Positions 5,865 to 64,000 of a stretch of 64,000 nt of DNA are shown piece by piece. Below the pieces are notes generated by a model, which was given only the letters and a program-made list of their open reading frames with translations, was not told the origin of the DNA and did not search any database. How positions within the stretch are numbered: the first letter of the stretch is position 1; every line of letters begins with the position of its first letter. The DNA is from Lunularia cruciata. Lineage: Eukaryota > Streptophyta > Marchantiopsida > Lunulariales > Lunulariaceae. The position numbers were made by a program, and so were the translations under genes. The stretch is taken from positions 2,953,303 through 3,017,302 of the forward strand of contig OX419759.1 of the NCBI GenBank assembly GCA_948567375.1. The letters run 5' to 3'.

Positions 5865-6270
5865 TGTGAGACGGCCTGTCTCTCACTCAAGATGAATCTC
5901 TGATGGCTATTATGGTAGCACACCATGGACTAAGAAGGCAAGGAACCCAAACTCCATCATACTCCTCCAAGGCTAACACTCCAAGACTCAAGACATTACT
6001 CACTAGAGAACTCAATGAGAGAGATAGTTGCAAATGAAAGGATGATGAGTACCTCCTCACCCCTTGTTTATATACTTGTGAAATAGTTACGCACCAAAGT
6101 TACTAATACTGGAGTAACTCAAGTTACTAGGCTAAAAGTCAAGTAAAGTCAAAAAGTAGAAAGGAATATCCATTCACATGGGCATATTCCACTAGCATGT
6201 GATCTTATCTTGACCCAACCACTAAGTCAAGGATTCCTTCACATGGGCTATCCTTGGACTATAGAAGAAT
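5865..6270 (-). repeat. KN1 3' LTR, outer segment
   Basis: Reads tgtgagacggcctgtctctc on the + strand, matching the start of the KN1 5' LTR at 22963. It runs without interruption to ctatagaagaat at 6270, where MP2 begins. The rest of the LTR is at 16261-16530. The gaat at 6267-6270 is the MP2 target-site copy. Confidence 0.87.
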
Positions 6271-6377
6271 TGTCGTGCGTATATACATTGCTACACAACA
6301 TACATCGCTGTCAACATCATACACTATAGAAACACAACTCACACATAAGTCATACATAGACTCTAAAGTGTCACAAT
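6271..6377 (-). repeat. MP2 terminal block b2
   Basis: A 107-bp copy of block b at the extreme 3' end, ending GCACGACA on the element strand. It is closely similar to b1 (6828-6936): both contain the rare string cacaactcacayataagtc and end at the element-strand start ATTGTGRCAC. Confidence 0.85.
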
Positions 6378-6827
6378 CAATCAGATTTTTTACCACTCTC
6401 AACTCAACTCAACTCAGATCAGTACTTGATCTGTCACTCTATAAACTGCCAACAATTAGGCATTGATTACAGTCAAGCCACATCCACTCAAGCATAGAGA
6501 ATCTAGGTGATGCTCGCCGGCCTCTGTCCACCATAGCCAAGAACTCGAAGGCTCAACATCAAAGAAGTGAGCTCTCTAGAGCTCACTTCAAAACTATACC
6601 CCTTGGACTCAAGCTAGCTCTGAAACCCTAACAGTCCTGTTGACGGCACACTCAACAATGCAAATGGTGCAAAGTGATAGTGGGCCCCACCGTGAAGTCA
6701 ATACCCCAAACACAAAATCCGATTGTCGGAAAGTAGTCTTTGAAATACTGCTGAAATAACTCTAACTACTATCACTAGAACTCCAATGTCCGAGCAATCT
6801 AGATGCAACACTACAAATGGCATGACA
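6378..6827 (-). repeat. MP2 terminal block a2
   Basis: About 450 bp homologous to a1 (15798-16260). On the element strand it starts TGTCATGCCATTTG and ends AATCTGATTG before b2. It contains the (GAGTT)n tract. Confidence 0.85.
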
Positions 6828-6936
6828 ACTATTGTGCATATATACATCACTACACAACATACATTGTTGTCAACATCATACACTATAGAAGCACAACTCA
6901 CATATAAGTCATACATAGACTCTAAAGTGCCACAAT
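6828..6936 (-). repeat. MP2 terminal block b1
   Basis: A 109-bp copy of block b lying between the polypurine tract and a2. On the element strand it begins ATTGTGGCAC immediately after the purine tract and runs into TGTCATGCC of a2. Confidence 0.85.
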
Positions 6937-6950
6937 TGCCGCCCTAGTTG
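6937..6950 (-). promoter_or_regulatory. MP2 polypurine tract
   Basis: On the element strand the sequence just before b1 reads AACTAGGGCGGCA, a mutated form of the AACTAGGGGGGCG tract of MP1. Its position defines b1, not a2, as the first base made by plus-strand priming. Confidence 0.6.
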
Positions 6951-7111
6951 GCTGTTAGGTCCCTCTAACTCCAGAGAGCCATCTACTCTAAGTATATGGT
7001 ATACCCTATAATGGGCAAATGGGCAAAGATTAGGAGGCCGGGTGCTATGAAGCCCCATCATTAGTTGCCTGTCTGCAATCTATACCATATAAAGAATGAA
7101 CTAGCTATAGG

Positions 7112-8450
7112 TCAAGTACATCAAGGACATAACCACTATCCCTGAGGAACCACCATGAGGGGAGGAGTCATACATGCCATATGCCATCCTCTCAAACAGC
7201 TATCACACACTAACATAGTAGCAACTCTACCAAAAGAGCCACATAACATGCACCTCAAGCCTGCACGTACAAGTGCCAAGCTTGGGTCCATAATACCATC
7301 AATGTTTGGGAGGTGGCATGGCGCACAATTGTGCACATGATCCTTTCAAACAACACCATCACGTCCTTCTAACACAAGGACTCCAGATGGCAAAATCTCA
7401 TGCACTCTCAAGATAGTGCGGCATGTTGAAACGTTAAGTGTCATCAATGTTGTCTGCTATAGATATACATAGTCGCTTGGATGAAATCGACGGATTGAGG
7501 GTCTATAACCTCCTCCTCAAATGGTAACATAGCATAAAGTATCTCTATGCTGAGCAATCGCCAAGTTCTCAAAGGCCATTGGCATCACTCTCCGAAAGAT
7601 CTTTGCCCGTTGAGAACATGCACTCATCCATACATTGGGGTCGTCTAAGTCCAAAACTACAGTAGCATCTCAACAAATGGCTGTAGGTAAATCTGGATCT
7701 CATCCATAGAGTAGAAAGTACGGAGAGAAGGATGCTAAGGAGGCTTGCCGGCTGAATCGATAGCCCATGGCCAACCAAGGTAACTGGAGATCCCAATCTC
7801 CCAAGTGGCCTCTCTGCAAACCATACTTTTGCAATCCTCTCTTCATCATCTGAACCACTCTCTCTGCTAAGCCATCTGCCTCTAGGTGATCTCAGGATGT
7901 AGTATGATGATCAATCAAAGCCTTGTCACACAAGACCTGAAACTCTCCCAAGAACCCTGTACCCTAATCAGTCAAAACCTCAATTGGTGCACCAAAATGA
8001 CTAAGAACTTGATCTAGGAATGAGTAAGCTGTCCCTTCACTAGACTTATCAGGAAGTGCCACCAACTCAATCCACTTGGAGAAGTGCTCCACCATCACCA
8101 AAACATACCGATGATGTCTCATAGTCAGCGGTAAAGGTCCAGCATAGTCCAAACTCCAATGATAACCCAATCCCATGATAGGTAATGGGTGTAACTGTGG
8201 CATAGGAGCATTGAATGATGCTCTAACTTGGTCACAAACCACACATCTTGCAACAAACTATTGTACCTTGGTCTGCATACCGCGCCACCAATAATGACTC
8301 TGGAGTAAGCTATATGTATGCTTTATTCCAAAATGTCCTAGCTCCTCATGAGCATGATGGACCAACTGTGGTCTTTGTGCTAGAAGTGGTACTACTTGCA
8401 CTCTACCATCCTTCCATACATGCAAAAGGTGTCTGCACTCCAATCTAAAC
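7112..8450 (-). pseudogene. MP2 integrase with C-terminal PHD finger
   Basis: Integrase inserts the cDNA. In order on the minus strand: H2C2 zinc-binding region (HHAHEELGHFG, then CVVCDQ, about 8370-8210), catalytic core with first D in WSLDYAGPL (about 8150), second D in EVLTD (about 7965, followed by an in-frame stop), and the E in ADGLAERV (about 7870). A CAPCHLPNIDG linker follows, then a PHD finger (7112-7250) with ligands CMLC, CDSC, GWHMAC and CPxC, in the C4HC3 spacing. Two stop codons fall at W/R-type codons within the finger. Most Ty3/gypsy integrases end in a plain tail or a chromodomain, so the PHD finger is unusual. The same arrangement occurs in MP1 and MP3. Confidence 0.82.
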
Positions 8451-8734
8451 CGTCTGGCTTACTGAAGAACACGGTCTCTCTCCTTGGTCCTAACGATGTC
8501 ACCCACAACACCAATGCAAAGATAATCCATCACTAAGACATCATCATGAATGTCTCGTTGAACTGTACCAATACCTTCATTCTTTGGATCTGTGACCTCA
8601 ATAACTCCTCCTGTATGTGCTTAGAGAGATACCACCAAAGCCTCTGAAAATATACACAGAAAGGCCAATGCATGCCAACCTGGCACCATCTCCTCATCTG
8701 TCTCACCATGCCAACTTGCTCCGGTCTGATCCTA

Positions 8735-10100
8735 CTAGCTGGGACATGGATTTCTACTCAACCCATCTGCATCACGGTTCACCACTCCAGGTCTGAGAAC
8801 AACTATGAAATCATACTCTTGTAAAATCAGAGCCCATTGTGCAAGCTTCCCTGAAAGATTGTCGGACTCCATCAACCACTTCAGTGGTTGATGATCAGTG
8901 ATGAGAGTGAAGGGGTTACCAAATAGGTAACATCGGAAATGTGCTACTGCCCAAACTGTTGCCAAGCACTCTCTCTCATATGAAGTATACTTCACCTCTG
9001 TTGAATTGTTGGAGCGACTAGCATAGGCCACCACAAACTCCTTCCCCTCATCATCATGTTGGGTGAGCACCACTCCAAGCTCCAACATACTCCAATCAGT
9101 ATGAAATTGAAATGGTTGTCCCTTGATCAGTCTCCTCAAAATAGGAGCAGATGTCAACCTCTCCTTGAGCTCTATAAAAGCTCTCTCTTGCTCATCTCCT
9201 CAACACCACTCTTGTGTAAGCCTAGTCAGCTTTGTCAAGGCCTTGGCAATGGCACTAAATCCTCTAACATAGCGGCGATAGAAGTTCACCAACCCAAGGA
9301 ATGCTTGCACTCTACTCACATCCGTAGGCCAAGGAATACGTGCAATAGCCTCCACCTTGGTCTGTTGAACACCAAGTCCTCCAGGGTAGATAGTGTGACC
9401 CAAATACTCAACCTACTTGTGGAAGAACCTACACTTCCTAAGATGTAATTTGAGTCCATGAGATCTCAACCTCTCAAACACCTCCAACAATTGTCTCTCA
9501 TGCTCCTCCACATTAGTGTTATAGACCAAAACGTCATCAATATAACACCGAGCAAAATCTAATCTAGCTAGGATCCTATCCATGACCCTCTGGAACTCAG
9601 CAAGAGCGTTCTTCAACCCAAATAGTAAGAACCTCCACTGATATAACACATCCTTGCCGTGAGGATCAATAGCCCAGAATGCTATCTTGGACTTATCCTC
9701 CTCCTTGATCAGCAATTGATGATATCCCGCTCGAAGATCCAAAGTACTAAAGACCTTTGTATGCCCAATCACATCAAAAATCTCCTCCGGTGTAGGCATG
9801 GCATATTGATCAGCCTTGGTCTATCGGTTGATAGGATAGTAATCTCCACACATCCACCTATCTATGTAGTTGCCATGCATATCCTTCTTGGCTGGCATCA
9901 CTGTTGCTAATGCATACTCTCCATGTGAAATCTCCACCAAACCAGCTTCAAAAAGGTCACTACTCCAGCTCTAAATCAATGTCCTCTCCATCTCACTATA
10001 TCAATAAGGACATTGGAAAACTAGCATATCACTAGTCAGCTCAATCCATATACCAAGTCCCTTCAAAGCACCCAAATCCTTCATATTGAAGGCAAAACAA
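8735..10100 (-). pseudogene. MP2 reverse transcriptase and RNase H
   Basis: Converts element RNA to DNA. The minus strand shows the RT palm motifs STLDLRAGYHQ (about 9745), FGLKNALAEFQRV (about 9620) and the catalytic CYIDDVLVY (about 9545), then the YLGHTIYP and FLGLVNFYRRYV connection motifs. RNase H follows with FHTDWSMLELG, YASRSNNSTEV, YERECLATVWA, and TDHQPLKWL (about 9100-8870), ending at LSRNPC near 8740. In-frame stops occur near 9410 and 9200. The region upstream (10100-10560) is a linker with three L-G-x-H-P repeats. Confidence 0.85.
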
Positions 10101-10559
10101 CTCGTGTGACTCCTCAAGAACCTCCAAACCCTCCGTCTTTCCTCTCCAGTAAGCTTGGGTCCAAGATCTGGCTCCCAAGTATCCTCTGTAGCTGTAGTAG
10201 GAGTGGAAGACGTATTGATTGGCTGCTACACTGGGCCCTTGGGAGCAATAGTGTCATGCTCCCAACCACTAGAGGTCCTAACCTCTGTGTGAAAAACTCC
10301 CTCCACTCTGGCTACAAGCTCCACATGTCCTCTAGCTGCATCCCAAGTGGACCAAGGGTGTAATCCAAGTAGGCCACGCTCACCTGGATGGACTCCAAGT
10401 AGACCACTCTCCCTAGTAGCTACTGGATGTGTCCCAAGAATACCATGTCCACTCGGTCCATCGCCCCCAACATGTGCCTGAATAGTCTCAATAGGCACAG
10501 GGCTCACAAGTGTCAGAGTGGTGATGCCTATCAAGCGCATCCTACGCTGCACTACCAAG

Positions 10560-11650
10560 CCAAGGCTCACAATCCAAGTCAAACAGTTCAGGTCCATACC
10601 TTGACCTAACACCTAATGCCCAGATACCTCTAACATTGCTGGAATAGTGGTAATACCGGTGCAAAAACCCATCACCCGCTCTCTCTCATTGGCATTGGAC
10701 TCCACCAATTGTTGTAACTATGAGTCCCAAACAAGTCCAAGTCCTCCCTCTCAAAAAGCATGAGAGCTTGGGAAACCCATGATCGTGGGAAATGCATGAA
10801 ATGTTGTCCAACTAGGTTCACCACTGCCAAAGGTGACCTATCAGCCACTATCACTATCTAAGACTAACACCCAACATCCAAGATATCATCAACAAAGATG
10901 TGGTCAAGTCGTTGAATCCCATCATAAGCGCGCTGTAGAACCTCTCTAGATAACAGGTTTTTCCACCAAAGACAAAGACGATGAGCCCGTGATCCCACTC
11001 TGGCTGCATCTAACAATACAGCAGGTCCCATCCAAGAATGGACCTGATGTGTACTTGCCACCACTCTAGTGCAAGAATCACCCATCAGAGGAACGTTCTC
11101 CAAAAGGTAAGTTGGAGAAACGAATTGATGAACTTGGAGATGTCGTACTATCCATATCATCTCCCAAAACACACCAAAAAAAGGATCTTGAAGACCCAAA
11201 CTGCGACGTGCATGTGTATGTCCCTAACATGGCCATCTAGAAATCACCAAGTGAATAGGCCCATGTCTCTCTAGGTCATGCGCCCCCAGTAAAGAAATGT
11301 CTGCCGGTAGGGCCTTTTGGTAACCTCTAACTATTCACATTGGTAATAACTTTAGATACCAATAGGCCAAGTGTGCCACATGATGTAGAGAGACTCGCCT
11401 AGTAGTCTCATCTCTCTCTACATACAAGTACTTATGTACTTGTATACCCGCCTGTAACACCACAACTAGTCCGGTGCTAATCCCACCGAACAACTCCAAT
11501 AGACATATCTCCTCTACTGAATACTGCCAAGCAATGAGTGTGGTATCTAGAGGTGTCAAAGCAATCACTTCTAGAAGCTTGTCCTCACACTCATCTCCTG
11601 ATGGTAGGAAGGCTCCACTCCAAGCCTGCTGCACCAATTGATCTGCATGC
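10560..11650 (-). pseudogene. MP2 C5-cytosine DNA methyltransferase domain (between protease and RT)
   Basis: C5 methyltransferases move a methyl group from S-adenosylmethionine to cytosine in DNA. The minus strand shows, in order: motif I LELFGGISTGL (about 11499-11467), motif II-like LYVERDE (about 11427), motif IV GPIHLVIS then W-P-C at 11228-11236 with the catalytic Cys kept and the next Gln codon turned into TAG, motif VI LLENVPLMGD (ENV at 11092-11100), motif VIII-like DAARVGSRAHR (about 11010-10978), a target-recognition-like stretch FPTIMGFPSSHAF (about 10800), and motif X ANERERVMGFCTG plus LGQGMDLN (about 10690-10595). The AHR-type motif VIII suggests a DNMT3/DRM-like rather than DNMT1-like enzyme; this needs a phylogeny. 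Frameshifts and stops make this copy inactive. Confidence 0.83.
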
Positions 11651-11840
11651 TGCTATAATGCCTCCTTGGAACTCCACAATGGAACATCCAAGGTGGATGG
11701 AACAATCCCACTTGTACTCCAAAGCCAAGTGATCTCCTCTGGTACTGGAGTATCCTCTGCATGGGTGTTCCCTCCAACAAGTCACCAAGCCAAGTAACTC
11801 CACCATTGAAAGCTAAAATTGATGTTGCCATGGTCTTGGA

Positions 11841-12729
11841 CTATAGTGAGCCAAGACTGCCACTACTAAAGCATACTGGTAGGCGACATACCCATCCCTC
11901 ACCAGACTGCCAACCAGGTCTATAAGAGGCTATCTCCTCCCAATAGTCAATGCTGAAACCCATGGGAGATAACACTGCTTCCCCAACTAGCACATCATAT
12001 GACTCAGCTATTGTAGCAATAGCTTGAGCTCTCACCACCAAGCTATCAATTGATGACCAGGTTGAACATGGACAACAAGCTCTCCATGTGTGATGTACTG
12101 TGTCGAACCACCACCTAGAGATGTCTGGATCTGAAATGGACACCTCTCCACATCGGTCTTCCGTAACTCTAGACCGACAACTACAGCCTTCCCCAACATA
12201 AAAGGCTGCACACTAGAGTCTAACAAGACTCTCTGTGGTGTATAGACCTTCCCTAAAGGTCCCACCAAACAAAAAAATCCCTATTTGGTTATCCAATAGG
12301 ACAACACCAGGTGTGAACTGTGCTCTCTCAAAGGCCGGTCTAGCTGGCAACTCCTCCAGTCTATCCGTTGTTGCTTGCCATAAACCAATGGTCACTGAAC
12401 GGATCCCATGCTCCTCAACCAAGTCAGCTCCACTATCAACCACCTCTGCCCTAGTCGTAGGAACCACACCATCCCTACTCTCACACAGCATGGCAGCCAA
12501 CCAAAACACTAGGGCTGGGTCAACTCCTAATGTAAACATGTCATTGGCCAAAAACAAAGGATGCCGTATAATCAGCTGAGCTGCCCCCCAACATCATGCT
12601 AGACTCAATTTGTGTAGTAGTAGGTGGCTGACTAGCAAGGAGTCCATCATGTACTCCATCACCACCTACCACACCTGCACTAAGACATCTAGGAACCATA
12701 GATGTCGTATGCAATGCCTCAAATAGCAT
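11841..12729 (-). pseudogene. MP2 aspartic protease and upstream linker
   Basis: Retropepsin cleaves the polyprotein. The active-site region reads RVLLDSSVQP near 12235-12205; MP1 keeps DSGA at the same place. Downstream YDVLVGEAVLSPMGFSIDYW (about 12000-11945) is the conserved C-terminal protease motif in which a typical member has a leucine-glycine pair before the last strand. The N-terminal half is linker with phrases such as GVVGGDGVHDGL. The domain is split over two frames by a frameshift near 12210. It lies directly before the methyltransferase. Confidence 0.72.
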
Positions 12730-12959
12730 GAAAGACTAGGGAAGTCTAACCTATCTCCCAACCTCTCGTCTCTATGGGTCCAACTCCATTGATGCTCCTC
12801 TAGGCTCTGGAGCACGTACTACGCTCTGGAGCACGTACTACGCTCCTAGTCAGTGCTGCAAATGCATCCACCTATGCTGTTATGCACATGAAGTCCAAAG
12901 CTTCTTTATCACTAGCATATGAGGTGGAAGCCTCAACATCCGAATCTGATCTCCTCTAA

Positions 12960-14426
12960 GCTATAGCCATACTAGCCAATCTTTGCTCCAACTGCTCAAT
13001 CTGAGTAGCCATAGTTGTGTCAGAAGTAAGGGCAGGTAATGCACCCCTACTAGGTGTAGATCCTCTACCACCACCTCTACCACCTCGTCCTCCATGAACT
13101 GGAGCTCCTCTACCATACCTACCATAGCAGCCTTACCACTCTGTAATTCCGGGTGTAGGTCAAAACACCGGTCACTAGTGTGACCAAATTTGTGGCAGTG
13201 CTCACATTGCCTCTATACTGGCTCTGATGCACCCGAGGTATCAAGTCCATTGCCCTAAGTACACTCTCTCTGATGGTGAGGTCCACCTCAAGTCCAACAA
13301 GCAACACCACCACTCATTGGCTACTGTTGACCCAAAAATGAAAGTAAGGGTCTAACTCCACTAGACCCTCTACTCGCTCCATAGGATCTGGGCTATCCAC
13401 CCTATCCTCAAAAACCAACTGGGCGTGGTGCACTCTACTGCACTCTAGAAGAAGTCACAACCGTGGATGAGGTCTCCATACCAAATCCAGATGTCACCAC
13501 CCTCTCCTCTACCATGTTAAGCTCAATACGCTCAGCCAAACCAAAGACCACTGCCAAAGTAGGTGAAGTAGCCAATAACAATGTAGCATCACAAACTCTA
13601 CGTCGCAACTCCCTATCCAATATCCCATACCAAAACTGGACTACTTGGGCCTCAGTAACTCCTTGAGTGAAATTGATCAGCCGCCTCATGCAAGTGTATG
13701 CCTCACGTAGGCTCTCTCCAGCCTTCCGTTGAAACTCCTACAAGCTCCTCAGCTTGTCAGTCCGTACTCCCTAGTAGTTCTGCCTCAAACACAGGAAGAA
13801 CTTCACCATGGGGTTAAAACCTAGTACCACACCACCTCCTGCAACGGTACCTCCACTCGTGGTTACATATCTCCAGCTAGTGCACCTCTACTAGCTCCAC
13901 CAACACTACTCGAGCTAAAACTCGTAGGTATAGCCGGTCTACTATTGGCCACCAAGCTTGAAGTGATGGAGACATAGTGTGGAGACCAATATTGTCTCCA
14001 CAATTCAATCTCCTCCAAATGAGCTCTCCTAAACTCATGGTAGTCATCCATTGGCAGACCCTCCAAGTGCTGAAACTACCCCTTCCATGCCATGAAGGAT
14101 GTGAACAAAGTCAAGTTCCACATCTGGTGCAGATCACACCAACTATCGAACTCTTGGATGAAGTTATCCAACTCAATGGTATCCACTATACCAAAGTAAC
14201 GCCTAGGGCCTTTGGAAGCCCCATAAATCTTGTCCATGTTCCACAACAATGGTGCGTACACACCAAGTGCACTCTCAACTGAATCAGCTCTTGTGTCAAA
14301 CTCCAACTCAAAGTCAATCTCCTCCCTCATTGAGACCTGAGATATAGGTTGATACCGAGCACCACTCCAAGTAAACCTACTACGTACTACAGGGTTAACT
14401 CCTCTGGAATCCCCAAAGAACTCCAT
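12960..14426 (-). pseudogene. MP2 gag with two zinc knuckles
   Basis: I choose the ATG at 14426 because it precedes the stretch shared with MP1 (GDSRGV). Capsid-like phrases include EFDSWCDLHQMW, EEIELWRQYW, and VQFWYGILDRELRRRV (about 13640-13590). Zinc knuckles lie at about 13290-13130 in a mix of frames; the second matches CENCHRFGHTSDRC of MP1. Several frame changes occur (for example between 13863 and 13689), so the protein is not made intact. Confidence 0.72.
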
Positions 14427-15797
14427 CGTGACCAAGTAACCGCAACAACAAACCAGAACCACCAATTACAACCGCAAGTCACAACCGCAAGACCCCACCA
14501 AGTGCCAACACCACCACGTGCCAACACCACCAAGTGCCAATACTAACTAAGCACCACCCACTAATGTAACTCTAACCAAGATAACTACACTAGGGGAAAG
14601 GGCAACCTGTAACCTACCATCATAACACGCACTCTCACGGTCTGCAGGTCATCACTTCTTGCTTCACCTGAGAGAAACAAAGGTAGCCTGATTGGTCATC
14701 ACTCCAACATCACTACCGAGAGCACACCAGAGCACCAACGCTCAAAAGTCAGGGCACCTTGCACAAATAGGAAGCAAAGAATGGAGGGGGTCCAATCACA
14801 AGAAATATAAACAAAAACCCTCCATCTCATAACACAACACGTGATTAACTCTACCACCATTTGGCATTTGACATAAGAGAAGTTCGTATCTAAGTCCTAA
14901 GCTACCAGGATCACCAAGAATGGGATCAAATTGCCTCTCCTAGCCAAAGCTACATGTGTATAGATAATAGTGGCATAGTCACTATGACAACAAGTGAGGG
15001 TGGACCAATTGGCTAGGGCACAAGTCTAGAAACAAGAGATCTAGGAGTCAAACCCTATTGCACATAGTCTTGCAAGAATGGCAGATTTTGCCAACCAATG
15101 ACCAAGATCTACTCTAAACTAGCTAGCCTCACACCAGCAAGCTGGCTTGCTGGCCCTTCTAGGCCTTTGTAGCCTCTCATAGCCCACATCTCTATGCCTT
15201 TAAACGCCAAAATTCAGCCAAATGAGGCCTTTCTTCTTGCCACTTAGGACCTCCTCAAAAATTGGCAAAACTTCTCCAAATCTACAAAGTCTTCCAAACT
15301 AGCAAAAGTTCTCCAAATTTGGCCAAAATCTGACATAAAATGTAGCCAAAATTTGACGTAAAATCTAACATAAACCCTAAAGTTGGCTATCTGCCAAATC
15401 TCCCACTAACTTTCCACTCAAGCCAAATTGATAACATGGGTTTTTCCACATCACAAATTCATGAGAATAACTTCCCAAATCCACCTTCAATTTGACTTTC
15501 TGAGCCTAGCTCGTAGCAAATTGGTCTTACCTTCACCTCTTAAGCTCAAAATCACAACCACTGCTCAAAATTTGCTTCTTCTTTGCTCAAAATTTGGCTC
15601 AAAATTTGCTTCTTCTTTGCTCAAAAATTTGCTTCTTCTTTGCTCTGCCTTACTGCTAAATTTGCATCAATTGAATGAGCTTCTCCACACTAGGGAAACA
15701 CCAAACTTGAATCAAGCTACCAACGATCTATCGAGCTTGGAGATATCACCAACACTCAAAGTTCTTGCACCCAATTTCCCCTCACTTCACTTCTTTG
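14427..15797 (-). other. MP2 leader between a1 and gag
   Basis: About 1.4 kb without a credible gene. It matches the MP1 leader (2914-4789) minus the ~565-bp extra block. The long open stretch at 15428-15862 on the + strand is an antisense shadow caused by pyrimidine bias. I find no sequence complementary to a tRNA 3' end next to a1. Confidence 0.6.
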
Positions 15798-16260
15798 ATG
15801 TAATCAGATTGTTTACCACTCTCAACTCAACTCAACTCAACTCAACTCAGATCAGTATTTGATCTGTCACTCTATAAACTGCCAACAATTAGGCACTGAT
15901 TACAATCAAGCCACACCCACTCAAGCATAAAGAATCCAAGTGATGCTCGTCGGCCTCTGTCCACCATAGCTAGGAACTCGAAGGCTCAACATCAAGGAAG
16001 TGAGCACTTTGGAGCTCACTTTGAAACTATACCCCTTGGACTTGAGCTAGCTCTGAAACCCTAATGGTCCCATTGATGGCATACTTGACGGTATGAATGG
16101 TGCAAAGTGATGGTGGGCCCTACCGTGAAGTCAATACCTCAAACACGAAATCTGACCGTTAGAAAGTAGTCTCTGAGATACTGCTGAAATAACTCTAACT
16201 ACTATCACTGGAACTCTAGTGTCCGAGCAATCTAAACGCGACACTACAAATAGCATGACA
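15798..16260 (-). repeat. MP2 terminal block a1 (5' end)
   Basis: About 463 bp; on the element strand it starts TGTCATGCTATTTG directly against the target gaat, and ends GATTACATC followed by leader sequence. No block b follows or precedes it, in contrast to a2. It has a longer (GAGTT)n tract than a2. Confidence 0.85.
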
Positions 16261-16530
16261 GAATCCAAAACAAAAAGGCTTGCAGGCCCAAGAATTCTCA
16301 ACTCTTTCCTAGGAATAATACCAAGTGAACACACTAGAATCCAAAATAGTGGTGCTCATCTTTTCCACCTCCTCTAAAGTAAGGTCCTCTCTATTTTAGC
16401 TATGACTAACTCTAGCTAATCATGACTAATGTAGAACCATCCTTTATCTATATATAAATAATATTCTCAAGTACTTGTAATACCAAGCTAAATATCACAA
16501 TACCACACATATGCACAAATGGGTGTTACA
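16261..16530 (-). repeat. KN1 3' LTR, inner segment
   Basis: Begins with the second gaat target copy and continues ccaaaacaaaaaggcttg exactly where the outer segment stopped at 6270, as judged against the intact LTR at 22963-23654. It ends gggtgttaca at 16530. Confidence 0.87.
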
Positions 16531-16545
16531 TTTACCCCCGGACTA
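16531..16545 (-). promoter_or_regulatory. KN1 polypurine tract
   Basis: On the element strand the sequence just before the 3' LTR reads TCCGGGGGTAAA, a purine run suitable for plus-strand priming. KN2 has ATGGGTAAA at the same place (36251-36259). Confidence 0.6.
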
Positions 16546-16589
16546 AGTTTTCACTTTGTCCTCAAAGTGAAGATCTCTCTACCTTCTAT

Positions 16590-18235
16590 GATACATCTTC
16601 AACTTATCATGGTTAATCCTATCAAAGTGTCTTCCTCCCAACTCCTTGAGATCATAGGTGTAATTGCCCCACACCTTCTCCACTATGAAAGGTCCAAAGT
16701 ATTTAGGCAAAAACTTCTTTTGCACTCTCTTGAATCGAACAGAATCAAACAACATTACCTAATCACCTTCTTTGAAAAGCTCTACCTTCTTGTTGCCTTA
16801 CCTCTTGTCATAGCTCTCCTTTTGTTTCCTTTGGGCTTGCTCCACTTGAATAGCAATTGCTCTTACCTCTTCCAACTTCATGAGTTGTTCCTTTCTTGAC
16901 TTCTTTGCATCACCTCCTTGTGCTTTCTTCAATCTCTTATGAATGCTTTGGAAGGTAGGAAGATCAAAGTGAATAGGTAAGGTAGACTCAATACCATATA
17001 CCAATTGAAATGGAGAATATCCGGTGGAAGTCTTCATGATTGTCCTATACTCCCACAAAACTGCATGAATCCTCTTGTCTCAATGATGTTTAGCCCCCTC
17101 CATTTCTGCATCTTTAGCCAACATCATGCACAAGGTCTGATTGGTTCTCTCTGCCAAGCCATTGGAATTTGGCTTATAGGATGTAGTTACTCTATGTGTG
17201 ATAGAGAAATGTCGTAGCATGGCTGTAGTGATGCTTCATGTAAACTCTCCTCCTCTATCAAAAACTATCTCCAAAGGGCACCCAAACCTAGTGATAATGC
17301 GTTCATAAAGAGATCTCCCAACTTCATCTTGATTCTTCTCCTTCAATGGTCTAACCTCAACCCACTTGGTAAGATAATCAATAACTACAACAATGTACCG
17401 ATTGTTCCTTAGGGTTCTATTGAGAGGACCTACAAAATCAATTCCCCACTTCTCAAAAGGTCCTAAGAATGGAATTGATCTAAGAAGTGGAGTGGAAGTA
17501 GACTTTCTAGCAAAAGCTTAATAAACATGACAAGTTTTGCAATAATCAAGACAATCCCTGAAAATCCCTCTCCAATGGTGACATGCATCTAGAATCTTGA
17601 AAGCAATCACCTTTCATGCAAAGTGTCCTCCACACACTAAACCTTCATGAAACTCCTTTATAAGTAGGATAGACTCTTCCTTACCCACCGCTCTTTGAAG
17701 TAGACCATCTGCTCCTTGGTGAAAAAGAATATCCTCCACCATTGTGTAAGGTCTAGATCTTGCTGCAAGGGCTTTCCTTTCCCTAGCATGCATCCCTTCT
17801 AGATAGTTACCTCTTATCACAAAATCCACAATCTCCTTGTACTCCATTGGAACCTCTTGAGTGACTGAGATTGTCATGAGCTCCTCATCTGGGAAGGAAT
17901 CATCCACTGGCTCATTTCCATCATGATCATAGGCTCTAGATAACAAATCAGCATTTGCATGTTTCTTTCCTGGCCTATCTTCAATGGTGTAGTCATACTC
18001 AGACAAGAGTATCATCCACCTTGCTAGTCTCCTTCAACATTAGGCTTGTTGAAGATGTACTTCAAAGCCTTGTGATCTATGACAATGGTGGCTTTCCCTC
18101 CAATCAAGTAGTGTCTAAACTTCTTAAGACCAAAGATCATTGCCAACCCTTCTCTCTCGGTGACAAAGTAGTTCTTCTCTGTTGAAACCATCTACCTACT
18201 AGCATAAGCTATTAGATGATCATGCCCATCTTGGT
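16590..18235 (-). pseudogene. KN1 RNase H and integrase
   Basis: From right to left on the minus strand: end of RNase H (TIEDRPGKKHANADLLSRA, about 17990-17940), H2C2 zinc region (HFA at 17618, then a CKTCHV phrase near 17550), integrase core with WGIDFVGPL (about 17440), second D in FDRGGEF (about 17250) and E in SNGLAERTNQ (about 17155). A C-terminal tail with DRINHDKLKMYHRR ends near 16590. No chromodomain is present. Several stops, for example at 17617 and within 17100-17000, inactivate it. It matches KN2 closely. Confidence 0.83.
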
Positions 18236-19073
18236 CTATTGACTAAGAGTGCATCCTATATCTACACTAGAAGCATTTGTATAGAGGATGAAAGGCTTAT
18301 TCCAATCAGGTTTAGCAAGAATTGGAGCTACAACAAGGGATTGCTTGAGCTCCTCAAAAGCTTTGAGAGCCTTCTTGTCCTCCAAAATCACTATGTAATC
18401 TACACTCTTCTTCATGTAGATGGTCAATGCATAAGCCTTGTTGGAAAATGAGAAGATGAACCTCCTATAGTATGCAACCATCCCCAAGAATTGGCGTAAC
18501 TTTGTCAGGCTTGAAGAGAATGGAAGGTCTGAGATTTTCCTCACCTTCTCAAGATCAACTGCTATTCCATCCTTGGAGATGATGTGCCCCAAAAGTAGAC
18601 CTTCTTCATATCCAAAAATGCACTTCTCTAGGTTGAGTGATGCATTTGCCTCATCCAAGCGTTGCAAGACTTTGATTAGGTGTTCAAAGGGCTCCTCCTT
18701 GCTCCCATAGACACAAAAGTCATCAATGAAGTCTCTCATAAATTTCCCAATGAAAGGTTCAAATACCTTGTTCATGAACCGATGGAATGTGGCTAGAGCA
18801 TTGCAAAGCCCAAAAGGCATGACCTTGAAAGCATAAGTTCCCCAAGGTATGGTGAACGTGGTGAGTTGTTGATGCTCTGGTGCAATCTTGATTTTGTTAT
18901 ATCCACTATAACCATCTCCAAAACTGTACCTCATGACCTACAACCTCCTCCAAGATCTCATCAATGAATGGCATTGGGTAGTAGTCATTCTTGGTAACAA
19001 CATTGAGCTTCTTGTAATCCACACATACCTGAAGCTTACCATTCTTTTTCTTCACAATGATAATTGGAGACAC
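18236..19073 (-). pseudogene. KN1 reverse transcriptase
   Basis: An open stretch of 232 codons (18934-18236) carries YSFGDGYSGYN, MPFGLCNALATFHRFM, and the catalytic FMRDFIDDFCVYG (about 18730), then GHIISKDGIAV and LRQFLGMVAYYRRFI. The DGYSGYN and IDDF-xVYG phrases are typical of the Athila/Tat side of Ty3/gypsy, not of chromoviruses. The N-terminal part (19073-18935) is separated by a stop at 18937. Confidence 0.85.
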
Positions 19074-21397: not shown

Positions 21398-21462
21398 CTT
21401 AATCCCTCACTATCTTTCTTTTCTCTCAATTTTTTTTCTCTTTTCTTTCTCTCACTCTATAA

Positions 21463-21645
21463 CTAATAGAGTATGTACATGACTAACACCATTTTAGAAT
21501 AATCCACCCTAGGGAATACAAAAGGTTCAGGTTGCTCCAAGATTTCTATAGCAACATCAAATCCTAGAGTGCATATTAATTGAACCCTCATGGATAGTTT
21601 ATCCATAAGTTGAAAGATTATCTCCATCACTAATCTTGAGAACAA
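21463..21645 (-). CDS. KN1 leader ORF 2: small conserved domain just before gag
   Basis: A 60-codon ORF. Its core (SMRVQLICTLGFDVAIEI, then PEPFVFPRVDYSKM, ending MYILY) has the same spacing of an L-G or F-G pair, a Pro followed by aromatic/hydrophobic residues, a Y-D or Y-G turn and a closing IYIL as the other leader ORFs in KN2, DL1 and CH1. Function unknown. It overlaps the end of the zinc-knuckle ORF by 16 bp. I do not recognise a named family. Confidence 0.62.
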   Translation of the reverse strand: MFSRLVMEIIFQLMDKLSMRVQLICTLGFDVAIEILEQPEPFVFPRVDYSKMVLVMYILY

Positions 21646-22921: not shown

Positions 22922-22943
22922 TATCTTGCCTTCTAGAGAGGTC

Positions 22944-22958: not shown

Positions 22959-22962
22959 AAAA

Positions 22963-25200: not shown

Positions 25201-25784
25201 TGGTGACTTGTTGGAGGGGAACACCCATGCAGAGGATACTCTAGTACTAGAGGAGATCACTTGGATTTGGAGTATGAGTGGGATTGCTCCATCCACCTTG
25301 GATGTTCCATTGTGGAGTTCAGAGGAGACATTGTAGTAGTATTCAGATTGGTTGGTGCAGTAGGCTTGGAGTGGAGCCTTCATACCATCAAGAAATGAGT
25401 GTGAGGATGAGCCTCTAGAGTCGATTGCTTTAACACCTCTCGATACCACACTCATTGCTTGGCAATATCCAAGAGAGGAGATATGTCAATTGGAGTTGTT
25501 TGGTGGGATTAGCACCGGATTAGTTGTAGTATTACAGATAGGTATACAAGTATAGAGGTACTTGTATGTAGAAAGAGATAAGATTGCTTGGCAAGTCTCT
25601 CTACATCATGTGGCACACTTGGCCTATCGGTATCTGAAGTTATTACCGATGTCAGCAATTAGAGGTTACCAGAACGCCCTACCATTAGACATTTCCTTAC
25701 TAGGAGCGCATGACCTAAAGAAACATAAGCCTATTCACATGGTGATTTTTGGATGGCCATGTCAGGGACATACACGTGCGGGCC
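25201..25784 (+). pseudogene. MP1 C5-methyltransferase domain, N-terminal half
   Basis: After the protease, a linker leads to LDTTLIAWQY and motif I LELFGGISTGL (about 25492-25524), then LYVERDK, ISLLGAHDL and motif IV HMVIFGWPCQGHTRAG (about 25735-25784), in which catalytic Pro-Cys-Gln is intact, unlike MP2. KN2 is inserted directly after this motif; the domain continues at 36950. Confidence 0.82.
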
Positions 25785-26474
25785 CATAACACCCATTTAT
25801 GCATGTGTGTGGTATTGTGATATTTAGCTTGGTATTACAAGTACTTGAGAGATATTATTTATAGAGATAAAGGATGATTCTACATTAGTCATGATTAGCT
25901 AAAGTTAGTCATAGTTAAGATAGAGGGGACCTTACTTTAGAGGAAGTAGAAAAGATGAGCACCACTATTTTGGATTCTAGTGTGTTGACTTGGTATTATT
26001 CCTAGGTGTTTGGCTTTGAGGAAAGAATTGAGAACTCTTGGGCCCGTAAGCCTTTTTGTTTTGGATTCTTCTTTAGTCCAAGGATAGCCCATGTGAAAGA
26101 ATCCTTGGCTTAGTGGTTGGGTCAAGATAAGACCACATGCTTATGGCAATATGCCCAAGTGAATGGATATTCCTTTCTACTTTTTGACTTTACTTGACTT
26201 TTAGTCTAGTAACTTGAGTTACTACCGTAATTAATAACTTTGGTACGTAACTATTTCACAAGTATATAAACAAGGGGTGAGGAGGTACTCATCATCCTTT
26301 CATTTGCAACTATCTCTCTCTCATTGAGTTCTCTAGTGAGCAATGTCTTGAGTCTTGGAGTGTTAGCCTTGGAGGAGTATGATGGAGTTGGGGTTCCTTG
26401 CCTTCTTAGTCCATGGTGCGCTACCATAATAGCCATCAGAGGTTTATCCTGAGTGAGAGACAGGCCGGCTCACA
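25785..26474 (+). repeat. KN2 5' LTR
   Basis: Starts cataacaccc (canonical TGTAACACCC with two changes) and ends ggccggctcaca. A TATATAAA box lies at 26263-26270, a plausible core promoter giving a start site some 30 bp later. Confidence 0.88.
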
Positions 26475-26502
26475 TTTTTTGCTTGGTTGCCAAGACCTCT
26501 CT

Positions 26503-36949: not shown

Positions 36950-37610
36950 GGCCATGGTTTGGGTCTTCAAGATCCTTGTTTTAGTGTGTTTTGGGAGATG
37001 TTATGGATACTACAACATCTCCAGGTTCATTAGTCCGTTCTCCAACTTACCTTTTGAAGAACGTTCCTTTGATGGGTGATTCTTGCACCAGAGTGGTGGT
37101 GAGTACACATCAGGTCCATTCTTGGATGGGACCTATTGTATTGTTAGATGTAGCCAAGGTGGGATCATCATCTTTGCCTTTGGTGGACAAACCTCTTACC
37201 TAGAGAGGTTTTACAACATGCTGATGATGGGATTCAACAACTTGACCACATCCTTGTTGATGACATCTTGGATGTCGGGTGTTAGTCTCAAACGGTGGTA
37301 GTGGTTGATAGGTCACCTATGGTAGTGGTGAACCTAGTGAGATAGCCTAGAGCTGTATTTCCCACACTCATGAGTTTCCCAAGCTCTCATGCTTTTTGAG
37401 AGGCAGGACCTGGACTTGTTTGGGACTCATAGTTATAGTAGTTGGTGGAGCCCAATGCTGATGAGAGAGAGCAAGCAATAGGTTTTTGCATTGGTATTAC
37501 CGCTATTCCAATAATGTTAGAGGCATCCAAGTGCAAGTGTTAGGTCAGGCTATGGACCTAAATTGTTTGACCTGGATTGTGAGCCTTGGCTTGTTAGAGT
37601 AGCGTAGGAT
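36950..37610 (+). pseudogene. MP1 C5-methyltransferase domain, C-terminal half
   Basis: Continues after KN2. Motif VI reads LLKNVPLMGDS (about 37050-37080); the catalytic ENV glutamate is Lys by a G-to-A change. Then HSWMGPIVLLDVAKVGS (motif VIII region, partly degraded), FPTLMSFPSSHAF (about 37360-37398), and motif X with ADERE at about 37460 and LGQAMDLNCLTW at about 37540-37575, in two or more frames. With the N-terminal half, all key motifs are present in the same order as in MP2. Confidence 0.8.
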
Positions 37611-38036
37611 GCGCTTGACGGGCATCACCACTTGGACACTTGTAAGCCTTTTGCCTATTGAGATAATTCAGGCACATGCTGGGGGTGATGGACCGAGTGG
37701 ACATGTTATTCTTAGGACACAACCAGTAGCTACTAGGGAGAGTGGTCTACTTGGAGTCCATCCAGGTGAGCGTGGGCTACTTGGATTACACCCTTGGTCC
37801 ACTTGGGATACAACTAGAGGACGCATGGAGCTTGCAACCAGAGTGGAGAGATTTTTTCACACAGAGGTTGGGACCTCTAGTTGTCAGGGGCATGACTCTA
37901 TTGCTCCCAAGGGCTTAGTGTAGCAGCCAGTCAGTACGTCTTCCACTCCTATGACATTTACAAAGGATACTTGGGAACCAAATCTTGGACCCAAGCTTAC
38001 TAGAGAGGAAAGACGGAGGGTTTGGAGGTTCTTGAG
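37611..38036 (+). pseudogene. MP1 linker between methyltransferase and reverse transcriptase
   Basis: Reads GPSGHVILRTQP, ATRESGLLGVHPGERGLLG, then LHPWSTWD, EVGTSSCQ and REERRRVWRF before the DL1 insertion. MP2 has three L-G-x-H-P repeats at the same place. Function unknown; it may be a flexible spacer. Confidence 0.65.
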
Positions 38037-38461: not shown

Positions 38462-38462
38462 T

Positions 38463-45670: not shown

Positions 45671-45682
45671 ACTAGGGGGGCG
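45671..45682 (+). promoter_or_regulatory. MP1 polypurine tract
   Basis: AACTAGGGGGGCG immediately before b1 (ATTGTGGCAC). A strong purine run, less mutated than in MP2. Confidence 0.7.
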
Positions 45683-45791
45683 ATTGTGGCACTTTAGAGT
45701 CTATGTATGACTTATGTGTGAGTTGTGCTTCTAAAGTGTATGATGTTGATAGTGATGTATGTTGTGTAGCGATGTATATACGCACGACAAT
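45683..45791 (+). repeat. MP1 terminal block b1
   Basis: 109 bp from ATTGTGGCACTTTAG to gcacgacaat, repeated as b2 at 46241-46349. Lies between the polypurine tract and a2. The join with a2 reads gcacgacaattgtcatgc, a near-perfect palindrome. Confidence 0.85.
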
Positions 45792-60126: not shown

Positions 60127-60207
<81 letters not shown>

Positions 60208-60294
60208 CTACACAACATAAATCATTTTCAATATCATACACTATGGAAGCATAACTCACACATAAGTCATACATGAACTCTAAAGTGCCACAAT
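60122..60294 (-). repeat. MP3 terminal block b2, expanded by a TA microsatellite
   Basis: Block b as in MP1 and MP2, but the short tatatata run near its end has grown to about 76 bp. Confidence 0.8.
60130..60205. repeat. (TA)n microsatellite, about 38 units
   Basis: Uninterrupted TA dinucleotides. MP1 b2 has tatatatatata-like short tract at the same place, so it arose by expansion within b2. Confidence 0.95.
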
Positions 60295-60799
60295 GATGTA
60301 ATCAACTTGTTCACACAACTCGAATCACATCCAATCAAATCAATACTTGCTCTATCACTCAATAATCTACCAACAACTAGGTTTTGATTACAATCAAGCC
60401 TCACCTACTCTAGCTAAGATAATCTAGTGATACTTACCGACCTCTATCCACCATAGCCAAGAACTTGAAGGCTTAACATCAAAGAAGTGAGCTCTCTAGA
60501 GCTGCACTTTGAAAGCATACTCCTTGGACTTAAGCTAGGTCTGAAACCCTAATGATCCCATTGATGACACACCCAATGGTGCAAATAGTGCAAGTGATGG
60601 TGGGCTCCACCATGTAGTCAGTATAAATGAAATCTGATTGTCAAAATATGAAATATGAAATCTAAATATGGTGGGGCCCAAATATGAAATCTGATTGTCA
60701 AAATGTAGTCCATGAGTAATTGCCAAAATACCTCTAATCATTATCACTACTAGTCTAGTGTCCAAGCAATCTAGATGCAACACTGCAAATGGCATGACA
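60295..60799 (-). repeat. MP3 terminal block a2
   Basis: Homologous to a1/a2 of MP1 and MP2, ending ggcatgaca on the + strand. It carries an internal duplication of about 50 bp around aaatctgattgtcaaaat (60625-60690) with the phrase ggtggggccc between copies. Confidence 0.8.
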
Positions 60800-60909
60800 A
60801 CTATCACGCATATATACATTGACACACAACATACATCATTGTTAACATCATACACTATAGAAACACAACACACAACATAAGTCATACATGAACTCTAATA
60901 TGCCATAAT
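60800..60909 (-). repeat. MP3 terminal block b1
   Basis: 110 bp matching b1 of MP1 and MP2, followed on the + strand by ttccacttagttggc, a degraded polypurine tract. The b1-a2-b2 order is the same as in the other two copies. Confidence 0.82.
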
Positions 60910-61075
60910 TTCCACTTAGTTGGCGGTTAGGTCCCTCTAACTGCATATAGCCATCTACTCCAAGTATATGGTATATCTTATCATGGGCAAAGATCAAGAG
61001 GCCAAGTGCTATCAAGCCTCATTGTTAGTCATCTATTTGCAATCTATAGCATATAAAGGATGAACTAGCTATAAG

Positions 61076-62420
61076 TCAAGTACATCTAGGACATAACCAC
61101 TATCCTTGAGGAACCACCATGAGAGGAGGAGTCAAACATACCATATGCCATCCTTTTGAATAGCTATTACACACCAACATAGTAGTAGCTCCACCAAAAG
61201 AGCCACATAACATACATCGCAAGCCTACACGTACAAGTGCCAAACTTGGGTCCATAGTACCATCAATGTTCAGGAGATGGCATGGTGCATAATTGTGCAC
61301 ATGATCCTTCCAAAAAACACCATCATGTCCTTCTAATACAAGGACTCTAGATGGTAAAACCTCGTGCACTCTCAAGATAGTGTGGCATGTAGAAACATCA
61401 AGTGTCATTGATGTTGTCTACTATGGATATACATAGTCACATGGATGAAATTGCCGGATTGAGAGTCTATATCCTCTTCCTCAAAAAATAGCACAACATA
61501 AGGTATCCTTATGTTGAGCAATCACCAAGTTCTCAAAGGCCATTGGCATCACTCTCCAAAGATATTTGCCCTTTAAGAACATGCACTCACCCATATGTTT
61601 GGATCATCCAAGTCCAAAACTACAATAACATCTTGACAAATGGCTGTAGGTAAATCTAGATCTTGTCCATAGAGTAGAAACTAAGGATAGAAGGAGGCTT
61701 ATTGGCTAAACCAATAGCCCATGGCCAACCAAGGTAATTGGAGATCCCAATCTCCTAAGTGGCCTCTTTGCATGCTATACTTCCGCAATCCTCTCTTCAT
61801 CACTTGAACCACTCTCTCTGCTAAGCCATTTGCCTTAGGTGGTATGGGGGAGGTAGTATGATGATCAATCAAAGCCTTATCACATAGGACCTGAAACTCT
61901 TCCATGAACTTTGTACCCTGATCAATCAAAACCTCAACTGGTGCACCAAAATGACTAAGCCGTCCCTTCACTAGACTTGTCACGAAGTGCCACCAACTCA
62001 ATTCACTTGGAGAAGTGCTCCACCATCACCAAAACATACCAATGATGTCTCATAGTCAATGGTAAAGGTCCAACAAAGTTTGGCAAACTCTAGCGGTAAC
62101 CCAATCCCATGATAGGTAATAGATGCAATTGTGGCATATGAGCACTACATGATGCTCTAACTTGGTCACAAACCACACATCTAGCAACAAACTACTATAC
62201 ATCAATCTACATACCGTGCCACCAATAATGACTCTAGAGTAAGCTATAGTATGTTTTACTCCAATATGTTTTAACTCCTCTTGAGCATGATGGGCCAACT
62301 GTGGTTGAGAAAATGGAAGTGGACTACTTGCACTCTACCATCTTTACACAAAGAAGGTGTCTACCCTCCAATCTAAACCACTTGGCTTGCTGAAGAACAC
62401 GGTCTCTCTCCTTGGCCTTA
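61076..62420 (-). pseudogene. MP3 integrase with C-terminal PHD finger
   Basis: PHD finger at about 61076-61220: CMLC, CNSY, GWHMVC and a stop at the codon before WLCP. Preceded by LRVHEVLPSRVLVLEG and YAPCHLLNIDG. Integrase core in 61699-62001 and beyond: VLIDQGTKF (second D), NGLAERVV (E kept); the first-D region (about 62060-62100) is damaged. H2C2 zinc region with HHAQEEL and FVTK in place of the second Cys pair (about 62230-62290). Confidence 0.8.
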
Positions 62421-62569
62421 ACTATGCCACCCATAACACTAGTGTGAAGATAGTCCATCATTAAGACATCATCATAAAAATCTCCTTAAACTATACCATT
62501 GTCTCCACTCTTTGGATATGTGACCTCAATAATTCCTCCTAGATGCACTAAGAGAGATATCACTAAAGC

Positions 62570-64000
62570 CTCTAAAATATACATAAAAAAGCAAATGCAT
62601 GCCAACCTTGCACCATCTCCTCATCTCTCTCACCACGCCAACATGCTCTGGTTTGATCTTGTTGGTTGGGACATAAGTTTCTACTCAACCCATATGCATC
62701 ATGGTTCACCACTCTGGGTGTATGTATAATTGTGAAATCATACTCTTGTAAAATCAAAGTCCATCATGCAAGCTTCCCTAAAAGCTTGTCGGACTTCATC
62801 AACCACTTCAATGGCTGATAATTAGTGATAAGAGTAAAGGGGTTACCAAATAGGTAACATAAAAAATGTGCTACTGCCCATATTGCTACTAACCACTTTC
62901 TCTCATATGAACTATACTTCACCTCTTCTGAATTGTTGGAGCAACTAGCATAGGCCACCATAAACTCCTTCTCCTCATCATCATGTAAGATGAGCATTGC
63001 TCCAGGCCCTAAAATACTCAATCAATGTGAACCTAAAATGGTTATTTTATGATTAGTCTCCTCAAAATAGAGGTAGATGTTAACCGCTCCTTGAGCTCTA
63101 CAAAAGTTCTCTCTTGCTCATCTCTCCAACACCACTCTTGTGTAAGCTTGGTTAGCTTCATCAAGGCTTTGGCAATGACTCTAATCCTCTCACATAATGG
63201 TGATAGAAGTTTGCCAACCCAAGGAATGCTCTCACTCTACTCACATCAATGGGCTGAGGAATACATGCAATAGCCTCCACCTTGGTTTGTTGAACACCAA
63301 GTCCTCTAGGGTAGATAGTATGACCCAAAAACTCAAATTGCTTGTGAAAGAACCTACACTTCCCAAGATGTAATTTGAGTCTATGAGATCTCAACCTCTC
63401 AGACACCTCCAACAAATTCCTCTCATGCTCCTCCACACTAGTGGTATAGACCAAAATGTCATCAATATAGCACCAAATAGAATCCAATCTAGCTAGGATC
63501 TTGTCCATGACTCTCTGAAACTCAGTAGGATTGTTCTTTAACCCAAATGGTAAGAACCTCCACTAATATAACACATCCTTATGTGAGGATCAATAGCCCA
63601 AAATGCGGTCTTGGACTTATCTTCCTCCTTGATCAACAATTGATGATATCTTGCTCAAAGATCCAAGGTACTAAAGACCTTTGCATGCCCAATCCCATTA
63701 AAGATCTTCTCTGGTGTAGGCATTGCATGCCAATCAGCCCTAGTTGGTTGGTTGATAAGACAATAATCTCCACATATCTACCTATTTGTGTAGTTGCCAT
63801 GCGTATCTTTCTTGGTTGGTATCACTATAGTTGATGCATATTCTCAATGTGAAATCTCCACCAACCTAGCCTCAAAAAGATCTCTACTCTGGCTCTAAAT
63901 CAATGTCCTCTCCATGTCACTATATTGATAAGGACATCAAAAAGTTATGTATTACTAATCAATTCAATCCAAATACCATCTCCTTTTAGAGCACCCAAAT
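62570..64000 (-). pseudogene. MP3 RNase H and reverse transcriptase (runs off window)
   Basis: RNase H phrases YASCSNNSEEVKYSSYE, FTLITNYQPLKWL (about 62990-62800). RT: CYIDDILVYT catalytic motif (about 63475-63445), YPRGLGVQQTKVEAI, FLGLANFYHHYV, then upstream FSTLDL-type region decayed near 63680. Stops and frameshifts occur throughout. Confidence 0.8.

What the first reader, a model, noticed from the sequence alone, without database searches (positions are those of the whole stretch)
10560..11650. A Ty3/gypsy element (MP family) encodes a C5-cytosine DNA methyltransferase between protease and RT
Seen: in MP2 the minus strand shows, in order, LELFGGISTGL, LYVERDE, W-P-C in a GPIHLV context, LLENVPLMGD, DAARVGSRAHR, a target-recognition-like stretch and ANERERVMGFCTG with LGQGMDLN. 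MP1 has the same set at 25437-25784 and 36950-37610, with an intact WPCQ. In both copies the domain lies between the protease (DSGA motif) and RT. Known: retrotransposon-borne C5 methyltransferases have been reported from dinoflagellates and charophyte algae (de Mendoza et al. 2018). Inference: this is a further, possibly separate, case of DNMT3/DRM-like capture, and the element might methylate its own or host DNA.
Basis: partly seen in the sequence, partly recalled or inferred. Interest (0 to 1): 0.95.

Follow-up and report, generated by a model that had tools for sequence, protein, structure and literature searches.

The report
Retrotransposon family carrying a DNA methyltransferase
A Ty3/gypsy jumping element, repeated thousands of times in what looks like a bryophyte genome, carries its own DNMT3-like DNA-methylating enzyme placed just before a leaky-type stop codon, which suggests that the element marks DNA itself.

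The parts
10560..11514 (-). MP2 DNMT3-like C5-MTase domain (pseudogene): motif I 11499, IV WPC-stop 11235-11224, VI ENV 11106-11092, VIII 11010-10978, X 10693-10586; frameshift near 10790
25470..25786 (+). MP1 MTase, N half, WPCQ intact at 25754-25765
36950..37620 (+). MP1 MTase, C half, beyond the nested element 25787-36949
10220..10228 (-). MP2 leaky-type stop TAG CAG CCA between MTase and RT, in frame with RT
37921..37929 (+). MP1 leaky-type stop TAG CAG CCA (its RT lies beyond a nested element, so the frame was not checked)
6271..16260 (-). MP2 element, ends TGTCATGC...GCACGACA, inserted in an LTR of another element, 4-bp target duplication GAAT (6267-6270, 16261-16264)
15802..16260 (-). 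MP2 repeat A1 (5' end; no B follows it)
6834..6936 (-). MP2 repeat B1, preceded by a G-rich tract
6379..6829 (-). MP2 repeat A2
6271..6378 (-). MP2 repeat B2 (3' end)
13132..13689 (-). MP2 gag part; zinc-knuckle-like CCHC at 13206-13132 (named by its motif)
   Evidence: tblastn with P0133, P0127
12053..12280 (-). MP2 protease stretch (DSG decayed to DSS; DSGA kept in MP1 at 24762-24803)
9416..9820 (-). MP2 reverse transcriptase, YIDD (RVT_1 E 1e-21)
8738..9199 (-). MP2 RNase H (PF17917 E 2e-35)
7967..8458 (-). MP2 DDE integrase: H2C2 (E 1e-11) and rve (E 7e-8)
7154..7252 (-). MP2 PHD finger after the integrase (E 2e-6; first 33 of 47 profile positions)
45682..45789 (+). MP1 repeat B1 (A2 45790-46240 and B2 46241-46349 follow directly)
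60190..64000 (-). MP3, 3' part; its MTase and a TAG-CARYYA lie just beyond the window (L044)

Best explanation
Shown, in MP2 and L002 and in parts in other copies: a Ty3/gypsy family laid out gag - protease - DNMT3-like MTase - UAG(CAR YYA) - RT - RNase H - DDE integrase - PHD finger; MP copies have split repeats A ... B-A-B. Inferred: the leaky UAG makes most product stop after the MTase, so the MTase is made at Gag level, packaged in the particle as Gag-protease-MTase and freed by the protease, while a minority of ribosomes read on to make RT and integrase. Inside the particle or pre-integration complex it methylates cytosines of the element's own new cDNA, giving it a mark that the host reads as self or heterochromatic before the integrase (with a PHD reader of histone tails) inserts it. 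Identity and architecture: about 0.95. Gag-level packaging: about 0.6. Own cDNA as main substrate: about 0.5.
For: DNMT3 identity. Layout in the window; in L002, an open-frame relative (MTase about 50% identical to P0001; protease match below cut-off), a single in-frame TAG CAA TCA parts the MTase frame from RT-RH-IN-PHD. Stop: TAG in 22 of 22 sampled copies, exact CAR YYA in 21 of 22; in frame with RT in 20 of 20 distinct copies where could check it. Of 810 genome matches to fixed flanks (the pattern demands CAR YYA), the 100 listed, all on contig C1, have 96 TAG, 2 TAA, 1 TTG, 1 GAG (my count). CAR YYA after UAG is essential for TMV readthrough (PMC2754532, passages). Selection: MTase variants shared by copies are 42 silent: 44 replacing, singletons 36: 92 (Fisher p 0.0024); RT-RNase H likewise, 37: 31 against 48: 118 (p 0.0003). 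MP1-MP2 dN/dS in the MTase 0.43 (0.23-0.83), 133 codons. SymbioDIRS DNMTs methylate CG in yeast (PMC5890265, section 10).
Against: No activity was measured here. The Klebsormidium enzyme gave no methylation in yeast (called inconclusive by its authors). Not all parts show the selection signal: protease p 0.61, linker 0.30, integrase 1.0, MTase tail 0.49. Six of the shared MTase variants are stops, so dead lineages or recurrent deamination feed that class. WPCQ is kept in 22 of 22 copies, but the copies were found by a PF00145 match over that very stretch, so this is biased. CpG observed/expected in MP copies (0.13-0.34) is not apart from other parts of the window (0.10-0.45). A divergent branch has ECQ at the catalytic motif, and P0143 of it joins MTase and RT in one protein (P0028, P0116, P0142 by eye), so the leaky stop is not general to the clade, though gene models may skip a stop.
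Confidence: 0.6

Rival explanations
1. The MTase works on host chromatin rather than on its own cDNA: it marks the target site or nearby genome, and the PHD-bearing integrase follows such chromatin.
For: PHD finger after the integrase in MP2 and L002; DNMT3-type fold; high copy number.
Against: In this family the MTase is joined to the Gag-protease frame and parted from the integrase by a stop. No targeting data.
Confidence: 0.2
2. The domain is a nucleic-acid binder or RNA methyltransferase that aids packaging or reverse transcription; DNA methylation is not its job.
For: It sits in the Gag-protease frame. A sister branch has ECQ instead of PCQ and, in Closterium, EHL for ENV (by eye), which may cost catalysis. 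KnitGypsy enzyme gave no methylation in yeast.
Against: Full DNMT3 catalytic fold and WPCQ in 22 of 22 sampled copies (biased sample). PDB matches to DNMT2-type tRNA MTases reach 18.6 bits against 48.4 for DNMT3A.
Confidence: 0.2
3. A passenger: a captured host exon multiplied with the element, without function.
For: Both window copies are dead.
Against: Shared-variant test and dN/dS; protease and MTase in one protein in Calypogeia P0048, and the MTase with recognisable gag or protease stretches in Marchantia, Sphagnum and L002 proteins (by eye).
Confidence: 0.04
4. Host DNMT3 pseudogene or assembly artefact next to an element.
For: None beyond the broken frames.
Against: Three copies in the nest and 22 sampled genome copies carry it; 3,262 motif matches in the assembly, control 0; host DNMT3 genes are elsewhere, in exons.
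Confidence: 0.01

Closest known systems
KnitGypsy-Dnmt3 of Klebsormidium nitens (de Mendoza et al. 2018, PMC5890265; abstract, passages and sections 6, 9, 10, 11 read)
   Same: Gypsy domain set with an unrearranged DNMT3-type MTase in the Pol frame, no introns, purifying selection on the MTase (Ka/Ks < 0.2 there), and DIRS-like repeats (figure 4 legend).
   Different: Here land plants, thousands of motif matches in one genome, MTase upstream of a leaky-type UAG, PHD finger after the integrase. The word 'protease' does not occur in the paper's main text; I did not look for a stop in it, and could not compare sequences.
SymbioDIRS-Dnmt3 (same paper)
   Same: DNMT3 MTase inside a retrotransposon with A-coding-B-A-B repeats.
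   Different: DIRS with tyrosine recombinase; here a DDE integrase and 4-bp target duplications.
DNMT3A/DNMT3B catalytic domain
   Different: No PWWP or ADD found (Pfam); WPCQG in place of SPCND; lies in a polyprotein.
DRM (plant de novo MTase)
   Same: Distant sequence match (37.6 bits, half domain).
   Different: DRM has the halves swapped; this one does not.
Gypsy elements with a readthrough candidate stop, such as rice RIRE2 (named in PMC2754532, passages)
   Same: A stop codon inside the coding region that may be read through.
   Different: No MTase known there (recalled, not tested).

Membership tests
DNMT3-type C5-MTase | Best relatives by sequence and fold are DNMT3 | tested here: met
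DNMT3-type C5-MTase | Canonical motif order I-IV-VI-VIII-X | tested here: met
DNMT3-type C5-MTase | Groups with host DNMT3 in a tree | tested here: inconclusive
   25 retro rows one clade 100/100 on a stem of 1.17; 4 host and 5 bacterial rows on the other side, root not known
DRM | Rearranged motif order | tested here: not met
Ty3/gypsy | PR-RT-RNase H-DDE integrase in this order | tested here: met
Ty3/gypsy | Identical full LTRs at both ends | tested here: not met
   5' end A only, 3' end B-A-B in MP1 and MP2 and in sampled copies as far as the stretches reach
DIRS | Split direct repeats A-coding-B-A-B | tested here: met
DIRS | Tyrosine recombinase; no target duplication (the latter recalled) | tested here: not met
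   rve integrase; 4-bp duplications GAAT, ACTT, TTTG
KnitGypsy-Dnmt3 lineage | Gypsy pol, DNMT3 in the coding frame, DIRS-like repeats, selection on the MTase | tested here: met
   held against the text of PMC5890265
KnitGypsy-Dnmt3 lineage | Same clade by sequence | not tested
TMV-type leaky stop | UAG followed by CAR YYA, in frame with the next coding part | tested here: met
   one of 22 copies departs (L016)
TMV-type leaky stop | Actual readthrough | not testable with these tools
   needs a reporter test

The most novel reading that the evidence does not exclude
An old streptophyte retrotransposon lineage makes a DNA methyltransferase at Gag stoichiometry through a conserved leaky UAG, methylates its cDNA in the particle, and integrates with a PHD-bearing DDE integrase from a circular form cut at the palindromic B|A junction (GCACGACA-NN-TGTCACGC), which would explain the A...B-A-B ends. 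It would be the same lineage in Klebsormidium, Closterium, mosses and liverworts.
Probability: 0.25. Interest if true: 0.88.

Novelty: new variant of a known kind. Interest (0 to 1): 0.74.

Why it matters
DNMT capture by retrotransposons was described from dinoflagellates and a charophyte alga. Here it is in land plants, including the model liverwort Marchantia (P0133, P0138), in one genome at thousands of motif matches, and under constraint. That turns 'why would an element methylate DNA, the very signal that silences it?' into something testable in a plant that can be transformed. It also warns annotators: such copies bear the name DNA (cytosine-5-)-methyltransferase in Sphagnum records and, as far as the cut-off name shows, a Marchantia one (P0021, P0029, P0094; names).

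Tried and rejected
DRM origin: rejected by motif order. Host exon or pseudogene: rejected by repeated order and by separate host genes. Viral or bacterial source: P0001 found nothing in viral contigs; alignment A3 found one viral contig (L001, 34%) and, besides L002, three bacterial loci (L003-L005, 29-32%), which fall outside the retro clade; no near source was seen in these collections. A special CpG trace: not seen. MTase-free relatives: 5 RT matches without a nearby motif match were fetched (4 have the MTase, 1 is cut). Own-genome searches with a DNMT3A segment and with repeat B did not complete. Papers: 10 searches. Among the titles and abstract starts listed I saw no report of DNMT-bearing retrotransposons in bryophytes; four of these lists were cut at 20 rows, and only open-access papers are held. 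PMC12344493 (section 5 and passages) says that some DNMT3 members sit in LTR Copia and DIRS elements, as reported in streptophytes and dinoflagellates; its text has no 'Gypsy' or 'bryophyte'. Passages only were seen of PMC10538959, PMC5784723, PMC6453930, PMC10952607, PMC6338049 and PMC2754532.

Full report
Check of the observation. The window copies are pseudogenes: MP2 has several in-frame stops, one just after WPC, and a frameshift near 10790; MP1 is split by an 11.2-kb nested element. Pfam gives the MP2 piece only E 0.33, but phmmer against the PDB gives 29 matches, all DNMT3A, 3B or 3C, best E 4e-6.

The nest. Self-comparison reads as MP1 being the outer element (2462-46349, plus strand; flanks TTAT and TTAC), cut by N2 (5865-23654, which itself holds MP2, 6271-16260, minus strand), by N1 (25787-36949) and by N3 (38037-42521). 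MP3 begins at 60190 and runs out of the window; the next 4 kb (L044) hold its MTase and a TAG-CARYYA in frame with the second RT piece of MP3 but not the first (MP3 is broken too).

Relatives. A search with the MP2 piece gave 17 proteins at E <= 10 of 566 candidates, the best at 64% identity, among them Calypogeia fissa and Marchantia polymorpha. A profile of ten relatives gave 645 proteins at E <= 0.01 (120 listed; 7,996 candidates scored), among them Sphagnum troendelagicum and S. tenellum. A third search from P0063 gave 45, among them Closterium. PF00145 is over its cut-off in 6 of 8, 10 of 10 and 6 of 10 of those scanned; P0010, P0017, P0137, P0145 and P0147 have no PF00145 hit, P0143 one just below the cut-off. 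A protease domain over its cut-off is in the same protein in P0048, P0124 and P0126. In P0141 (1,104 aa) RT, RNase H and MTase share one protein, with the MTase after RNase H.

A natural open-frame relative. A contig filed under a cyanobacterial MAG (L002, 9,206 of 9,285 bases held), in my view a eukaryotic contaminant, has one frame with MTase (E 7e-12) and a protease match below cut-off, a single in-frame TAG, then a 1,047-aa frame with RT, RNase H, integrase and PHD. A 48-base repeat joins its first bases and the end of the stretch. Its pol matches MP2 from 10216 to 7118 at 58% in one frame.

The stop. L002 has TAG CAA TCA, MP2 and MP1 TAG CAG CCA. Of 22 distinct genome copies all have TAG there and 21 have CAR YYA (L016 has CAG CAA); could check the frame in 20 of them, all in frame with RT. 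With flanks held fixed the genome has 810 matches; of the 100 listed, all on contig C1, 96 are TAG, 2 TAA, 1 TTG, 1 GAG (my count; the pattern itself requires CARYYA and near-intact flanks). The passage I saw calls CAR YYA essential for TMV readthrough and mentions gypsy candidates from rice.

The genome. It is unnamed, 565.8 Mb in 74 contigs; PF00145 scored 123 of 2,161 candidates. A codon pattern for WPCQGHT with up to one mismatch gives 1,618 + 1,644 = 3,262 matches, reversed control 0; a pattern for the RT YIDD box gives 4,839, control 0. Host DNMT3 genes (L006, L009) lie in exons, and a DRM (L007) has the swapped order (my reading of the frames). For one copy (L026) the nearest named relatives are Calypogeia (72.5%), Sphagnum (70.8% over 267 residues) and Marchantia (67%), so the host is probably a bryophyte; that is inference.

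Selection. In the MTase, variants seen in two or more copies are 42 silent, 44 replacing, 6 stops; singletons 36, 92, 11; neutral ratio about 2.7 (p 0.0024). RT-RNase H behaves alike (37, 31, 9 against 48, 118, 14; p 0.0003). Protease (0.61), linker (0.30), integrase (1.0) and tail (0.49) show no significant difference, some with small numbers. Pairwise MP1-MP2 dN/dS: MTase 0.43, protease and linker 0.66, pol 0.79. The copies were picked by a PF00145 match around motif IV, so conservation of WPCQ itself (22 of 22) is biased; the stop and RT are not so picked.

Ends. MP2 is flanked by GAAT on both sides and runs TGTCATGC...GCACGACA. The 5' end has A alone in MP1 and MP2; the 3' end has B1-A2-B2 in both, and B1 and B2 are seen in MP3. 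In five further copies B1-A2-B2 was seen in 4 (the fifth stretch starts at A2). At the 5' end A without a following B was seen in 3; in a fourth the stretch ends inside A, in the fifth nothing matched. A1-A2 identity is 97-99% (3 measured) and B1-B2 94-100% (4 measured); in the older MP1 and MP2 85-92%. So both pairs seem to be renewed at replication. Duplications ACTT and TTTG were read in two of the five copies, the others not settled. De Mendoza et al. describe DIRS-like repeats in KnitGypsy-Dnmt3. My guess is integration from a circle cut at the B|A palindrome; it is untested.

Tree. 25 retro-MTases form one clade (100/100) apart from 4 host and 5 bacterial rows; the ECQ rows P0048, P0028, P0031, P0137, P0141 and P0142 group together (90/84) although their MTase sits in two different places of the polyprotein. 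Limits: retro rows were found by likeness to each other, few outgroup rows, long branches, no K. nitens row; whether the clade springs from host DNMT3 is not settled by it.

Mechanism. The anatomy says that the MTase belongs to the Gag-protease product and is parted from RT and integrase by a leaky-type stop. From that I infer packaging and methylation of the cDNA in the particle. De Mendoza et al. proposed cDNA self-methylation for SymbioDIRS and showed CG methylation by it in yeast, but saw none with KnitGypsy, which they call inconclusive. Nothing here measures activity.

Verdict. It is a new variant of a known kind: the known kind being DNMT3-bearing retrotransposons; the new parts being land plants, copy number, the leaky-type stop and the PHD finger.

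Noticed in passing
P0048, P0028, P0031, P0099, P0116; P0137, P0141, P0142-P0144: A branch of the retro-MTases has ECQ instead of PCQ at the catalytic motif; in Closterium also EHL for ENV. Whether they still methylate is unknown.
   Followed up: partly
P0141, P0137, P0145: In some unnamed relatives the MTase lies after RNase H or before the integrase rather than between protease and RT, so the domain has moved within the polyprotein.
   Followed up: partly
window 6271-6936, 45682-46349, 60196-60909; L034-L038: Split repeats A...B-A-B with a palindromic B|A junction and a G-rich tract before B1, in an element with a DDE integrase and 4-bp target duplications; how it replicates is not explained by the usual LTR cycle.
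   Followed up: partly
L002 (CADCWO010000201.1); P0053: Retrotransposon pieces filed as bacterial: in a Synechococcales MAG and in an Obscuribacterales MAG record; probably contamination.
   Followed up: partly
P0010 (AXG93_3964s1130): The Marchantia gene model lacks the motif IV stretch, perhaps a false intron.
   Followed up: no
window 1-64000: Much of the window is nested LTR elements, with strong CpG depletion (observed/expected 0.28).
   Followed up: partly
L008 (G000:C8:50012091-50015366): Another PF00145 gene fragment of the genome, with no tblastn match to DNMT3A or the retro-MTases; class not determined.
   Followed up: no
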